DNA of 64,000 nucleotides, from positions 186,001 to 250,000 of the forward strand of contig NZ_SNUG01000001.1 in assembly GCF_012027325.1 (NCBI RefSeq). The letters run 5' to 3'. Positions 51,027 to 57,269 of this stretch are shown piece by piece (within the stretch, counting starts at the first letter, position 1; each line of letters starts with the position of its first letter). The notes below the pieces were generated by a model. It saw nothing but the letters and a program-made list of their open reading frames with translations. It was not told the origin of the DNA and did not search any database. Source of the stretch: Thermococcus sp. M39. Its GTDB lineage: Archaea; Methanobacteriota_B; Thermococci; Thermococcales; Thermococcaceae. A program made the position numbers and the translations under genes.

Positions 51027-52439
<1,413 letters not shown>

Positions 52440-53276
52440 TCAAACCATCTCCCTCTCGCGCTTCCACTTCTCAAAAGAAATCTTCTCTAAATCCTTGTAA
52501 TAATCTAAACGCTTCATCAACTCATCCCAGTTCACTTGGTGTGCATCAAACTCTGGACCATCAACGCATGCAAACTTTATCTCTCCGCCTACTGTTACTC
52601 TGCAAGCGCCGCACATTCCGGTGCCATCAACCATAATTGGGTTCAGGCTGGCAACTGTCTTTATGCCATATGGCTTTGTGAGCTCTGCGACGAACTTCAT
52701 CATTATCGTTGGTCCAACTGCATGAACTAAGTCAATCTTTCGCCCTTCATCTATGAGCTTCTGAAGAGCATGAGTTGTGAATCCTTTCATTCCATAACTC
52801 CCATCGTTTGTTGTCACTATGACTTCATCACTAACTTGTTTCAGCTTATCTTCCCAGAACACAAGCTCTTTTGTTCTGAAGCCAAGAATTGAGATCACGT
52901 AGTTGCCAACTTCTTTCATCGCTCTTGCAACGGGGTAAATCTCCGCGACGCCAACACCGCCGCCTATCATTACAACTGTCCCGAACTTATCAATGTGACT
53001 AGGCCTCCCGAGAGGACCAAGAACATCGAGAATATAATCTCCCGCCTCATAAGTTCCCAGTTCGTGAGTAGTTTTTCCAACTTCTTGAGCGACTATTGTA
53101 ATTGTGCCATTCTCAGGATTTGTGTCCGCTATGGTTAAAGGAATTCTCTCACCTTTTTCGTGGAGTCTGAGAATCACAAATTGTCCCGGTTTGGCCTTTT
53201 TTGCGATTCTTTCAGCCTTGATTTCAAAGAGATTTATTCCGGGAGCTAATTTTTCTTTATGCAAAATTTCAAACAT
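52440..53276 (-). CDS. sudB: NfnS/SudB small subunit (ferredoxin-NADP reductase-like)
   Basis: This 278-residue FNR-type protein has the flavin motif PGQFVILRLHEKGERIPLTI, an NAD site GGGVGVAE, and a C-terminal [2Fe-2S] cluster (GMCGACRVTVGG, then FACVDGPEF). It pairs with SudA. ATG 53276 is near GGTGAG and begins a transcript with a TATA box on the minus strand (AATTTTTATATC, 53309-53320) that is next to the shared SurR-type site. Order sudB then sudA matches Pyrococcus. Confidence 0.94.
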   Translation of the reverse strand: MFEILHKEKLAPGINLFEIKAERIAKKAKPGQFVILRLHEKGERIPLTIADTNPENGTITIVAQEVGKTTHELGTYEAGDYILDVLGPLGRPSHIDKFGTVVMIGGGVGVAEIYPVARAMKEVGNYVISILGFRTKELVFWEDKLKQVSDEVIVTTNDGSYGMKGFTTHALQKLIDEGRKIDLVHAVGPTIMMKFVAELTKPYGIKTVASLNPIMVDGTGMCGACRVTVGGEIKFACVDGPEFDAHQVNWDELMKRLDYYKDLEKISFEKWKREREMV

Positions 53277-53333
53277 TCAAGCTCACCAAATACTAAATTA
53301 GTTTTGCAGATATAAAAATTCTTTTCACTATTA

Positions 53334-53350
53334 GTTGATAACTAACTGTT
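53334..53350. promoter_or_regulatory. SurR-type binding site between sudBA and shyBCDA
   Basis: GTTGATAAC-TAACT-GTT fits the extended SurR consensus GTT-n3-AAC-n5-GTT at every fixed base. SurR is a redox-sensing activator of hydrogenase genes in Thermococcales that releases DNA when elemental sulfur is present. The site lies about 14 bp upstream of the sud TATA box and about 9 bp upstream of a shy TATA-like CTTAAATC (53360-53367), so one site could serve both operons. Confidence 0.75.
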
Positions 53351-53416
53351 GTAAAAATCCTTAAATCTAAAATTTGACAAATATAAAAAGAAGAAATAAT
53401 TTAAAAGGTGATTATC

Positions 53417-54421
53417 TTGAGATATGTAAAACTTCCGTCTGAGAATTTTGAGGAATTTTTCAATTCTCTAAAAAACTGGGGAACAATTTATGCTCCAGTA
53501 AAACAGGGAGACATTTATTCTTTTGAGCAGGTTAATACCTTAGAAGAAGTTTCGTTAGATTACACCCGAACGATGCTTCCTCCAAAAAAGTTCTTTGTCC
53601 GTCCAAAGGACACCCTTTTAAAGCTAAAAAACGGCAGATGGGAAGAAAGCAAGGAAGTTGAAAAGATAGTTCTCTTTGGAGTTCATAGCTGTGATATTCA
53701 CGGTCTTCAAATTCTTGATAAAGTATATCTAGCTGAGCCCATTGACTCTTATTACAAAAATAGAAGAGAAAATGCGGTTATTATCGGGATTAGCTGTATG
53801 CCAGATGAGTACTGCTTCTGTAAGAGTTTAGGAACGCACTTTGCAATGCACGGCTTTGACTTGTTTTTGCATGAGCTTCCAGATGGTTGGCTTGTCAGAG
53901 TCGGGAGTGTAAAAGGGCATGAAATAGCATGGGTTAATGAAAGCCTTTTTGAGGAAGTTACGGAAGAGGACTTAAAGCATTTCAAAGAGTTTGAAGATAA
54001 GCGCTCCGCTTCATTCAAAAAGCATTTGAACAAAGAAGGACTAGCTGATATGCTAGATTTGGCATTTAACAGTCCAGTGTGGAAAAGGTATGAGGACATT
54101 TGTCTTGGTTGCGGAAACTGCAACATGGTGTGTCCAACATGCAGATGTTATGAAGTCTGCGATTTCTGGGTAAACGCTTACGAGGCTGTGAGGGTTAGGA
54201 GATATGACTCATGCTTTATAGAAAGCCATGGACTCGTTGCCGGTGGTTATAACTTTAGACCTACTCGCTTGGATAGATTTAGGCATCGCTATTACTGTAA
54301 AAGCTATTTCGACCCTTCTGCAGGCTTCAACTGTGTAGGTTGTGGGAGATGTGATGAGTTCTGTCCAGCGAAAATAGAGCATGTGAAAGTTCTTGATGAA
54401 GTTGGGGAGGCATTGAAATGA
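53417..54421 (+). CDS. shyB: Sulfhydrogenase II beta subunit
   Basis: This 334-residue electron-transfer subunit of the cytoplasmic sulfhydrogenase is thought to carry S0/polysulfide-linked electron flow. It has two [4Fe-4S] patterns (CLGCGNCNMVCPTCRCYEVC near residue 230 and CVGCGRCDEFCP near 307). The start is TTG 53417 (MRYVKLPSE) with GGTGAT upstream; the GTG nine bases earlier is part of that site. The subunit order and the adjacent sudBA genes match the second (shy) hydrogenase of Pyrococcus furiosus better than the first. Confidence 0.93.
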   Translation: MRYVKLPSENFEEFFNSLKNWGTIYAPVKQGDIYSFEQVNTLEEVSLDYTRTMLPPKKFFVRPKDTLLKLKNGRWEESKEVEKIVLFGVHSCDIHGLQILDKVYLAEPIDSYYKNRRENAVIIGISCMPDEYCFCKSLGTHFAMHGFDLFLHELPDGWLVRVGSVKGHEIAWVNESLFEEVTEEDLKHFKEFEDKRSASFKKHLNKEGLADMLDLAFNSPVWKRYEDICLGCGNCNMVCPTCRCYEVCDFWVNAYEAVRVRRYDSCFIESHGLVAGGYNFRPTRLDRFRHRYYCKSYFDPSAGFNCVGCGRCDEFCPAKIEHVKVLDEVGEALK

Positions 54422-55287
54422 ATCCGTTTCAAACTTATGATACGAGGATTTTGGAAGTTAAAGAGCTTACCTCAAGGGAGAAGCTCTTCACGCTTAGATT
54501 TGTTGATCCAGAGGTTAACAAAGAATTTACATACAAACCTGGCCAGTTTGTCATAGTTGATATTCGAGGCTTTGGGGAGTTCCCAATAAGCCTTTGCTCT
54601 TCTCCAACTAGAACCGGCTACTTCCAGCTGTGTGTGAGAAGGGTTGGAAGGATGACAAAATACATGCATAAACTTAAGGAAGGGGATATTATTGGCATTC
54701 GCGGTCCTTATGGCAATGGATTTCCAATGGAGGAGATGGAAGGTTCAAACCTCCTTTTAGTTGCTGGTGGCTTAGGAATGGCACCATTGAGGAGCGTTCT
54801 CTGGTATGCACTGGACAGCGGAAAATATGGGCAGATATACCTATTCTATGGAACCAAAAGTTATGAGGACATTCTTTTTAGAGATGAGATTATCCACCTC
54901 CTGAAGCATGGGGAGGCAATGAACTGCAAAGTGAAGCTTGCTTATGAGGTTGAGAGTCCATCATGCATTTACCTTGAGAAGGGCTTTGCTCCCAAGGTCT
55001 GTAAAGGTGTTGTAACAGATTTATTCAGAGGAGAAGAGTTGGACGTAGAAAATACATACGCTTTAATCTGTGGGCCTCCAGTGATGTATAAATTCGTGAT
55101 AAAGGAGCTTTTGAGCAGAAAGCTCTCTCCAGGCAGGATTTACATGACACTTGAGAGGAGAATGAGGTGTGGAATAGGCAAGTGCGGCCACTGTATTGTG
55201 GGAACGAGCACGTCAATAAAGTATATCTGCAAAGATGGGCCAGTCTTCACTTATTGGGAAGCTCTTTCTACAAGGGGGTTGATTTAA
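54418..55287 (+). CDS. shyC: Sulfhydrogenase II gamma subunit
   Basis: This 289-residue diaphorase subunit has an FAD-binding beta barrel (YKPGQFVIVDIRGFGEFPIS), an NAD(P) fold (GGLGMAPLRSVL) and a C-terminal [2Fe-2S] motif (MRCGIGKCGHC, then ICKDGPVF). It passes electrons between the hydrogenase core and NAD(P)H. It overlaps shyB by 4 nt and abuts shyD. Confidence 0.95.
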   Translation: MNPFQTYDTRILEVKELTSREKLFTLRFVDPEVNKEFTYKPGQFVIVDIRGFGEFPISLCSSPTRTGYFQLCVRRVGRMTKYMHKLKEGDIIGIRGPYGNGFPMEEMEGSNLLLVAGGLGMAPLRSVLWYALDSGKYGQIYLFYGTKSYEDILFRDEIIHLLKHGEAMNCKVKLAYEVESPSCIYLEKGFAPKVCKGVVTDLFRGEELDVENTYALICGPPVMYKFVIKELLSRKLSPGRIYMTLERRMRCGIGKCGHCIVGTSTSIKYICKDGPVFTYWEALSTRGLI

Positions 55288-56025
55288 ATGCTCAAGCTGG
55301 GAGTTTTTGAGCTGACGGACTGTGGAGGTTGTGCCCTAAATGTTTTGTTTCTCTACGACAAGCTCTTTGATTTGCTTGAGTTCTATGAAATAAAAGAATT
55401 TCACATGGCATCGAGCTTTAAGGAGCATGGTCACCTTGATGTAGCTATCGTTACTGGAACTGTATCCTCTCAAAGGGATTTGGAGGTGCTGAAGCATGCG
55501 AGGAATTACTCTAATTATCTAATTGCTTTAGGGACATGTGCAACTCATGGTTCTGTTCAGGGAGCTGTGGAAGGAAAAATAAGAGCAAAGTTGGAAAAAG
55601 TCTATGGTACAAGGGCTAATCCAATGAAAGCCTTGGATGCAAAGCCCATAGTTGAACACGTAGCTGTTGACTTTGCTCTGCCCGGTTGTCCGTATGATAA
55701 GATGGAGCTTTATCAACTATTAATTGACATAGCAAAAGGTATTGAGCCTGTGAAGAAGGATTATCCGGTCTGTATTGAATGTAAGCTCAATGAATATGAA
55801 TGTGTTCTTGTAAAGAAAGGTCTGCCATGCTTAGGCCCAATAACCCTTGGTGGATGTAATGCGGTGTGCATAAGATCTAAACTGGGATGCATTGGGTGCA
55901 GAGGACCTCTGCCGAAAGAAGCGAATCCAACAAGTGAATTTGAGATTCTCAAGGAGTTGGGATATGATGAGGAATACATACGAAAGAAGTTTAAGACATT
56001 TGCAAGGGGTGAGCTGAGATGGTAA
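55288..56025 (+). CDS. shyD: Sulfhydrogenase II delta subunit (NiFe hydrogenase small subunit)
   Basis: This 245-residue protein is the small subunit of the NiFe hydrogenase. It has Cys ligands in ELTDCGGCALN (proximal cluster), GTCATHG, LPGCPYD, and the later CIECKLNEYEC, GLPCLGPITLGGC and GCIGCRGPLP, enough for three [4Fe-4S] clusters. It has no Tat signal, which agrees with a cytoplasmic enzyme. It begins one base after the shyC stop and overlaps shyA by 7 nt. Confidence 0.95.
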   Translation: MLKLGVFELTDCGGCALNVLFLYDKLFDLLEFYEIKEFHMASSFKEHGHLDVAIVTGTVSSQRDLEVLKHARNYSNYLIALGTCATHGSVQGAVEGKIRAKLEKVYGTRANPMKALDAKPIVEHVAVDFALPGCPYDKMELYQLLIDIAKGIEPVKKDYPVCIECKLNEYECVLVKKGLPCLGPITLGGCNAVCIRSKLGCIGCRGPLPKEANPTSEFEILKELGYDEEYIRKKFKTFARGELRW

Positions 56026-57269
56026 TTCTTGAAGTTGGTGAGTTCACAAGGGTTGAAGGAAATGGTAAAGCAGAGATTGTCATTGAAAATAGAGAGGTCA
56101 AAGAAGTTAGAGTAAAGATAGTCGAGGGACCAAGATTCTTTGAATTGCTAACACTTGGCAGGTATTATTGGGATGTTCCAGATTTAGAGGCAAGAATCTG
56201 TGCAATCTGTTATTTAGCACATTCATTTGCCTCAGTTCTTGGAATTGAGAAAGCTTTTGGAGTTAAAGTTCCGGAGGAAATTCAACTTTTGAGGGAACTT
56301 GGTCTGATTGGGGAATTCCTTGAAAGTCATGCATTGCATTTGTATCTCTTAGTAGCCCCAGATTTGTTTGGCTATCCAGATGCAATTAGAATGGTAAGTA
56401 AGCATGGTGAACTCGTAAAAGAAGGACTTACTATCAAAAGCTTTGGAAATTACATTAGGGAGATAATTGGGGGAAGAGAGATTCATGGTATTAACATAAA
56501 ACCCGGTGGATTTGGGAGATATCCAACAGCGGATGAGCTTGAAAAAATTGAGAAGAGCTGTGATGAGCTCTTGAGGATGGCAAAGAGGGCTGTCAACATT
56601 TTTGCAACTCAAGATGTTTTTGGAGCTGTGCCAGTGTATCACATTGCTACGGATGAATATCTCTATGGAGAAAAGCTGATTGCATCTGATGGGGAGAGGT
56701 TTGATTATCTTGAGCACATCGAAGAGAAAACTCTGCCATACAGTTTTGCAAAGCAGAGCAAATACAAAGGAGAAATCTTCATGGTTGGTGCACTCTCGAG
56801 ATTAATGCTCAAAGCCGATAAGCTAACACCAATGGCGAAGGAATTATTTGAGCAGCATAAAGAGAAGCTTTCTCAAGGTTACGTCAGCTTAAACAACTTA
56901 GCACAGGCAATTGAGCTGGTATATGCAATTGAAAGAGCAAAAGAAATCGTAAGTACGCTTTTAGATAGAGGAATCAAGGGTGAGAACGTTCCAATTGAGC
57001 CCAAAGAAGGAGAAGGTATAGGCTATGTTGAAGCTCCGAGAGGAGTTTTAATCCATCACTATAAGATTGATGGGAATGGGAACATAACTTATTCCAATAT
57101 AATAACCCCCACAGCTCTGAACCATGCGTTAATGGAGCTGAGCCTCTATGAGGAAACCAAGAAAAACTACGGCACTTTAGATGAGAATTCGTTGACACAT
57201 AGATTGGAAGAGACTGTTAGGGCATTTGACCCATGCATTTCATGCTCTGTGCATCTCGTTAGACTTTGA
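56019..57269 (+). CDS. shyA: Sulfhydrogenase II alpha subunit (NiFe catalytic subunit)
   Basis: This 416-residue subunit carries the NiFe site, with N-terminal RICAICYLAHS and C-terminal DPCISCSVH supplying the four cysteine ligands. Four residues (LVRL) follow the final His, which is the expected tail for removal by a maturation endopeptidase. The length matches ShyA better than the longer HydA. ATG 56019 follows GGGGTGAG. No maturation genes are in the window. It needs nickel, plausibly supplied by the transporter at 26.9-29.2 kb. Confidence 0.95.
   Translation: MVILEVGEFTRVEGNGKAEIVIENREVKEVRVKIVEGPRFFELLTLGRYYWDVPDLEARICAICYLAHSFASVLGIEKAFGVKVPEEIQLLRELGLIGEFLESHALHLYLLVAPDLFGYPDAIRMVSKHGELVKEGLTIKSFGNYIREIIGGREIHGINIKPGGFGRYPTADELEKIEKSCDELLRMAKRAVNIFATQDVFGAVPVYHIATDEYLYGEKLIASDGERFDYLEHIEEKTLPYSFAKQSKYKGEIFMVGALSRLMLKADKLTPMAKELFEQHKEKLSQGYVSLNNLAQAIELVYAIERAKEIVSTLLDRGIKGENVPIEPKEGEGIGYVEAPRGVLIHHYKIDGNGNITYSNIITPTALNHALMELSLYEETKKNYGTLDENSLTHRLEETVRAFDPCISCSVHLVRL

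What the first reader, a model, noticed from the sequence alone, without database searches (positions are those of the whole stretch)
53334..53350. Single SurR-type site placed between two redox operons
GTTGATAACTAACTGTT fits GTT-n3-AAC-n5-GTT at all fixed positions and lies in the gap between sudBA and shyBCDA, next to TATA-like elements of both. Sulfur should switch off both operons together.
Basis: partly seen in the sequence, partly recalled or inferred. Interest (0 to 1): 0.55.

Follow-up and report, generated by a model that had tools for sequence, protein, structure and literature searches.

The report
Sulfur-switch site between two redox operons
A short DNA signal read by the known archaeal sulfur sensor SurR sits between a hydrogenase operon and a transhydrogenase operon; it is real and deeply conserved in front of the hydrogenase, was already reported in close relatives, and very probably switches the hydrogenase, and likely its neighbour, off when sulfur is present.

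Summary
By count alone it is not above chance. Conservation settles it: 39 of 40 Thermococcales regions upstream of shyB hold the exact motif, against at most 6 of 40 for any of 142 other spacings. The site is one unit of a 14-bp-period array, GTTn3AACn5GTTn3AACn5GTT, in fixed phase with the shy TATA box; the window keeps the proximal unit, while the distal one has decayed where the sud promoter lies. SurR is encoded with its CxxC. The same site is already tabulated for T. barophilus and T. piezophilus. SurR activation of shy, lost with sulfur, is well supported by analogy. Control of sudBA is likely but weaker: the motif's phase belongs to shy, it sits near sud only in some genera, and published pressure data uncouple the two operons. 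'Both off together' fits a review's account of P. furiosus but is untested here. An ordinary member of a known regulon; the array and the exchange of sud for an Nfn-Bfu-like operon opposite it are the fresh details.

The parts
53334..53350 (+). SurR long motif GTTGATAACTAACTGTT (GTTn3AACn5GTT), third GTT pointing to shy
   Evidence: exact motif in 39 of 40 Thermococcales upstream regions; T. barophilus copy published
53334..53342 (.). palindromic core GTTn3AAC; centre 22 bp from the C that opens the shy TATA element, 20 bp from the first T of the sud TATA
53320..53328 (+). decayed distal unit of the 14-bp array (TCT-n3-CAC in place of GTT-n3-AAC); overlaps the sud BRE
   Evidence: TCT/CAC in 5 of 5 genomes of the window's genus; GTT in 33 and AAC in 35 of all 40 regions
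53351..53368 (+). BRE/TATA-like element of shy (GTAAAAATC CTTAAATCT)
   Evidence: mostly invariant in 5 genomes of the genus; a CTTA-like anchor was found in all 40 regions. No mapped start site.
53310..53326 (-). BRE/TATA-like element of sud (GAAAAGAA TTTTTATAT)
   Evidence: alignment; by patterns fitted to these sequences the TATA lies 39-45 nt before the sud start in 18 of 18 sud-adjacent genomes, G032 by a pattern written for it. No mapped start site.
52440..53276 (-). sudB = small subunit of NfnI
   Evidence: PRK06222 above cut-off; best PDB match 5JCA chain S, NfnI, E 4.1e-164
51027..52439 (-). sudA = large subunit of NfnI (GltD-like)
   Evidence: TIGR01316, 710.7 bits, cut-off 471.75
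53417..54421 (+). shyB, hydrogenase II subunit beta
   Evidence: NF040829 702.6 bits, cut-off 690
54418..55287 (+). shyC, hydrogenase II subunit gamma
   Evidence: NF040830 619.2 bits, cut-off 600
55288..56025 (+). shyD, hydrogenase II subunit delta
   Evidence: NF040831 478.8 bits, cut-off 460
56019..57269 (+). shyA, hydrogenase II catalytic subunit alpha
   Evidence: NF040828 793.1 bits, cut-off 700

Best explanation
53334-53350 is a SurR operator. Without sulfur, reduced SurR (a dimer with a CxxC switch) binds the GTTn3AAC core and the added GTT, just upstream of the shy BRE/TATA, and helps assemble the transcription complex, so hydrogenase II is made. The same bound protein sits just upstream of the sud BRE/TATA and very likely activates sudBA (NfnI) too. 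Sulfur oxidises the CxxC, SurR lets go, and shy falls; sud probably falls with it. Shown here: sequence, place, conservation, phase against the TATA element, presence of SurR. Inferred: binding, direction of control, and all control of sud.
For: 39 of 40 regions hold the exact motif, the next best of 142 other spacings 6 of 40, the best of 300 letter-permuted patterns 4 of 40. Half-sites GTT2 and GTT3 are present in 40 of 40 at fixed distance from the TATA element; array score 12-15 of 15, letter-shuffled regions at most 9. Half-site columns are 93.5% conserved, spacers 53.6% (the anchor was chosen to maximise half-site matches, which flatters this figure). SurR in the same genome: NF047699 400.8 bits, cut-off 250, matches 2QLZ (PF0095) with the two cysteines kept; orthologues of 61% identity or more (293.8 bits or more) in 36 of 37 genomes of the family, while the best match in the 24 genomes outside it scores 51.3 bits at 28%. 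Two non-Thermococcales shy loci lack any core. Published: T. barophilus SHII, one long motif, forward, 67 bp upstream; G006 is that strain by its shyB start 59,761 and surR end 563,965. T. piezophilus SHII and NfnI long motifs at 69 and 72. The window core lies upstream of both TATA elements and is the only core in the gap. Sulfur lowers nfnI and SHII in P. furiosus, by the papers' passages.
Against: No binding or expression data for this genome, and no mapped start sites. The count of motifs is not above chance. The sud-facing third half-site is GTG, not GTT, in all 5 genomes of the genus; it is GTT in only 2 of 13 genomes with a close core. Core-to-sud-TATA distance differs by genus (20; 28-30; 31; 93-94; no core in G032) whereas core-to-shy-TATA is 22 or 36 in 38 of 40. 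T. piezophilus and T. barophilus pressure data uncouple the two operons. In T. barophilus shII was reported up 18-fold at 70 MPa in the comparison with the partial surR deletion, sulfur present, which simple activation does not predict. PMC10025317 reports no SurR sequence at the sh operons of its Groups 2-4. One non-Thermococcales locus (L046) reaches 10 of 15 on the array score when any anchor is allowed, above the anchored shuffles, so a partial array score alone is weak evidence.
Confidence: 0.7

Rival explanations
1. The operator serves shy alone. sudBA merely lies back to back and has its own SurR-independent promoter.
For: Phase and orientation of the array follow the shy TATA in 38 of 40 regions, including the 21 loci where another operon is divergent; the sud-facing third half-site is not GTT in 11 of 13 genomes with a close core, and sud is 93-94 bp away in 4 genomes; pressure data uncouple the two.
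Against: nfnI falls with S0 in P. furiosus; in G009, where the gap is 248 bp and the shy-side array has no exact core, an exact long motif stands with its core 31 bp from the sud TATA (a second core lies 19 bp past that TATA, a place tied to repression); the T. piezophilus authors list the site for NfnI.
Confidence: 0.2
2. SurR bound at the core blocks the sud BRE, 7 bp away, so sulfur lowers shy but raises sud: an antagonistic switch.
For: In the window's genus the core lies only 20 bp from the sud TATA and the sud BRE overlaps the decayed distal unit. In T. onnurineus SudA (TON_0057) was detected only on sulfur and SHII gamma only on starch; SuDH rises on sulfur in Pa. pacificus, and PMC6981617 Table 2 lists SuDHI as up in P. 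furiosus.
Against: The surR promoter, held to be self-activated, has its core at about the same distance, 23 bp (counted by eye). No core lies downstream of the window's sud TATA within the gap.
Confidence: 0.1
3. Chance match without function.
For: 0.38 expected per window; genome count below its reversed control.
Against: Exact motif in 39 of 40 regions from six genera, in phase with the shy TATA in 38 of 40.
Confidence: 0.01

Closest known systems
SurR site of the T. barophilus MP SHII promoter (PMC12162507, Table 2, passage read)
   Same: Same genus, same gap, same orientation and distance (GTTGATAACTAACCGTT, 66-67 bp before shyB); G006 identified as that strain by gene coordinates.
   Different: One spacer base differs (C for T).
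T. piezophilus SHII/NfnI long motif (PMC8595942, Table 2, passage read)
   Same: A long motif listed upstream of both operons, whose locus tags are consecutive.
   Different: Distances 69 and 72; sequence not seen here.
SurR regulon of P. furiosus (Lipscomb 2009, 2017; not held; known through citing papers and recall)
   Same: Motif, regulator, activation from upstream of BRE/TATA.
Nfn-Bfu of T. sibiricus (PMC9304861, passages read)
   Same: NADP/ferredoxin transhydrogenase; the paper says each Thermococcaceae organism has Nfn-Bfu or NfnAB but not both.
   Different: nuoE-like genes stand opposite shy in 21 of 40 loci, sudB in 18; that these are Nfn-Bfu is inference from NuoE/NuoF models in one locus.

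Membership tests
SurR operator (long type) | GTTn3AACn5GTT at all nine fixed bases | tested here: met
SurR operator (long type) | Lies upstream of BRE/TATA for an activated gene | tested here: met
   by conserved elements, not by mapped start sites
SurR operator (long type) | Conserved at the same promoter in relatives | tested here: met
   39 of 40 regions
SurR operator (long type) | Genome encodes SurR with CxxC | tested here: met
SurR operator (long type) | Binds reduced but not oxidised SurR | not testable with these tools
   needs gel shift
SurR operator (long type) | Transcript falls with S0 or without SurR | not testable with these tools
   only literature on relatives
Shared operator acting on both operons | Core at a constant distance from the sud TATA in all genera | tested here: not met
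   20, 28-30, 31 or 93-94 bp; no core in G032
NfnI (sudBA) | Closest solved relative is NfnI | tested here: met
   5JCA chain S, E 4.1e-164, ahead of 4YLF and 5VJ7
Hydrogenase II (Shy) | All four subunits pass the NCBIfam equivalog cut-offs | tested here: met

The most novel reading that the evidence does not exclude
The shy operator is a multi-dimer SurR array of five half-sites with 14-bp period, in fixed phase with the TATA box across the Thermococcales, of which lineages keep the distal unit, the proximal unit or both; and the slot opposite it is held by one of two differently built electron-bifurcating transhydrogenases (NfnAB or Nfn-Bfu), so that one operator may have kept hydrogenase and transhydrogenase under common sulfur control through a gene replacement.
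Probability: 0.35. Interest if true: 0.5.

Novelty: new member of a known kind. Interest (0 to 1): 0.3.

Why it matters
It would tie NADPH supply (NfnI) to H2 uptake (hydrogenase II) under one sulfur signal in Thermococcus. The comparative result gives a clean test of how SurR spacing sets activation, because nature has kept cores at 22 or 36 bp from the same TATA element.

Tried and rejected
Counting the motif in window and genome as evidence: rejected, not above control. Reading the T. onnurineus and Pa. pacificus sulfur-induced 'SuDH' as evidence about sudBA: set aside, because loci with a nuoE-like gene opposite shy show no sudB of 50% identity or more in the stretch examined and G010 has only a 46% paralogue. 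That G010 is Pa. pacificus, that g2 is Pyrococcus and that g3 holds the relatives of T. onnurineus is my recall of genome sizes, not a tool result; two tries to check the first in the paper failed on bad terms. A sud-facing mirror site: rejected for the window (GTG in place of GTT). Paper searches for the double array or for SurR with sud/shy or Nfn-Bfu listed nothing on point beyond the papers cited; only open-licence papers are held, so this does not show that it is unpublished. Structure prediction was not used: the proteins match known families.

Rows dropped before the 40-region count: G005 and G018 (contig ends; G018's upstream was never fetched), L031, L034 and L047 (same contigs as G002, G009 and G035), the non-Thermococcales L045 and L046 (used as negatives), L032, L036 and L041 (not given to the count), and L048-L050 (34-36% identity in ShyB). 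G017 and G036 are identical over 150 bp but both counted (39 distinct). G009's exact motif is near sud, not at the shy TATA, so 38 of 40 have it in phase with the shy TATA. The control genome matches were examined for 30 of 43. The automatic TATA call failed, was wrong or was off by one for L035, L042 and L043; one search replaced it. The 14/19/5/2 split of cores is my tally.

Full report
The observation. The sequence GTTGATAACTAACTGTT is at 53334-53350 as stated and is the only perfect GTTn3AACn5GTT in the window. It lies in the 140-bp gap between sudB (start 53276, minus strand) and shyB (start taken as TTG 53417). In current terms sudBA is NfnI, an electron-bifurcating NADH-dependent ferredoxin:NADP oxidoreductase.

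Chance. Motif counts do not help: 0.38 expected per window, with 30 of 100 shuffles reaching one match, and in the whole genome 33 matches against 43 for the reversed pattern. Location helps a little: 19 of 33 matches are outside ORFs of 100 aa or more, against 6 of 30 control matches examined of 43. Several of the non-coding ones stand before genes expected of a SurR regulon: surR/pdo, a second sudB-like gene (NfnII type), MnhE-type antiporter genes such as open mbh clusters (the last from recall), CoA-disulfide reductase, formate dehydrogenase and hypF.

Conservation. I took up to 250 bp upstream of shyB from 40 Thermococcales regions (dropped rows are listed under Tried and rejected). 39 of 40 hold the exact motif; among 142 other spacings of the same three words the best reached 6 of 40 and the mean was 0.21; among 300 patterns with permuted letters the best reached 4. 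The one miss, G032, has GTA-AAC-GTT-AAA-GTT.

What it really is. Anchored on the shy TATA element, the conserved unit is a row of half-sites with 14-bp period, GTTn3AACn5GTTn3AACn5GTT, reaching from 40 to 10 bp before the TATA. The second and third GTT are present in 40 of 40. By my tally, both units are intact in 14, only the distal one (36 bp) in 19, only the proximal one (22 bp) in 5, neither in 2 (G009, G032). The five proximal-only genomes are the window's genus. Their distal unit reads TCT-n3-CAC and overlaps the sud BRE, so the sud promoter seems to have grown over it; that order of events is inference. Half-site columns average 93.5% identity, spacer columns 53.6%; the anchor was chosen to maximise half-site matches, so this comparison is biased upward, whereas the test is not.

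The reader protein. The genome's L074 protein matches the NCBIfam SurR model (400.8 bits, cut-off 250) and the solved PF0095, with both cysteines of CxxC kept (CTEC). Orthologues occur in 36 of 37 genomes of the family at 293.8 bits or more (the miss, G035, is 77% complete); in the 24 genomes outside it the best match has 51.3 bits at 28% identity, with short stretches up to 41% over 54 residues. Two shy loci of Candidatus Methanodesulfokora, outside the Thermococcales, have no core upstream; their best array scores at any anchor are 8 and 10 of 15, against 12-15 in the 40.

Published status. PMC12162507 (passages) lists for T. barophilus SHII one long motif, forward, 67 bp upstream of TERMP_RS00325 at 59,761. 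G006 has its shyB start at exactly 59,761 and its surR ending at 563,965, as in that table, so its GTTGATAACTAACCGTT is the published site. PMC8595942 (passages) lists long motifs for SHII (69) and NfnI (72) in T. piezophilus. The site is therefore a further instance of a documented one.

Does sulfur switch off both? For shy, probably: SHII is listed as down on sulfur in P. furiosus and T. onnurineus, though without clear change in Pa. pacificus (PMC6981617 Table 2; PMC4463584). For sud, PMC6405883 reports that nfnI expression decreases with S0 in P. furiosus, while PMC6981617 Table 2 lists P. furiosus SuDHI as up. The reports of sulfur-induced 'SuDH' in T. onnurineus and Pa. pacificus probably concern other enzymes, because in 21 of 40 loci the gene opposite shy is NuoE-like (HMM-tested in one, with NuoF behind it; the rest by reading the translations), and PMC9304861 states that Thermococcaceae have either Nfn-Bfu or NfnAB. 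sudB is opposite shy in 18; one contig ends there. The core-to-sud-TATA distance is 20 bp in 5 of 5 genomes of the window's genus, 28-30 bp in 7 of 8 of g2, 31 bp in G009 from a separate sud-side site (with a second core 19 bp past the TATA), and 93-94 bp in 4 of 4 sud-bearing g6 genomes. The sud-facing third half-site is GTT in 2 of 13. So selection on the site is visible for shy; for sud it is suggested in three genera and not in the fourth. Under pressure, T. piezophilus SHII and NfnI move apart between 0.1 and 50 or 90 MPa despite the shared site, though both rise from 50 to 90, and in T. barophilus shII moved while nfn hardly did, so the site does not force joint expression.

Verdict. A real SurR operator of hydrogenase II by sequence and conservation, an ordinary member of a known regulon, probably shared with NfnI in this genus. 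The array geometry and the exchange of the divergent partner are the points worth keeping.

Noticed in passing
40 shyB upstream loci, e.g. L095:188-2447: The gene divergent from shy is sudB in 18 loci and NuoE-like (probably an Nfn-Bfu-type operon; NuoF behind it checked in one) in 21, as if one transhydrogenase had replaced the other in the same slot.
   Followed up: partly
upstream of the SurR array in nuoE-type loci, e.g. L095, L096: A conserved GTGCACTAAAGTAC element (up to 1 mismatch) was found in 18 of 22 loci without sudB (one of them a contig edge) and in 2 of 18 with sudB; by eye it lies between the nuoE TATA and the array. Regulator unknown.
   Followed up: partly
L055/L056, L058/L059, L061/L062 (own genome): Three non-coding places carry a fully symmetric AACn5GTTn3AACn5GTT, one of them before an MnhE-type antiporter gene.
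   Followed up: no
L035, between the shy TATA and shyB: An insertion of about 94 bp with inverted ends (ACTGTCA...TGACAGT) flanked by a repeated ACAAACTTA separates the shy TATA from its gene; looks like a small mobile element (sequence, read by eye).
   Followed up: no
L045, L046: Candidatus Methanodesulfokora carries ShyD 69-70% identical to the window's but no SurR core upstream, which suggests transfer of the operon without its operator or loss of it.
   Followed up: partly
G032 (L104): This genome has sudB next to shy but no exact SurR core in the gap; two half-sites of the array are changed.
   Followed up: partly
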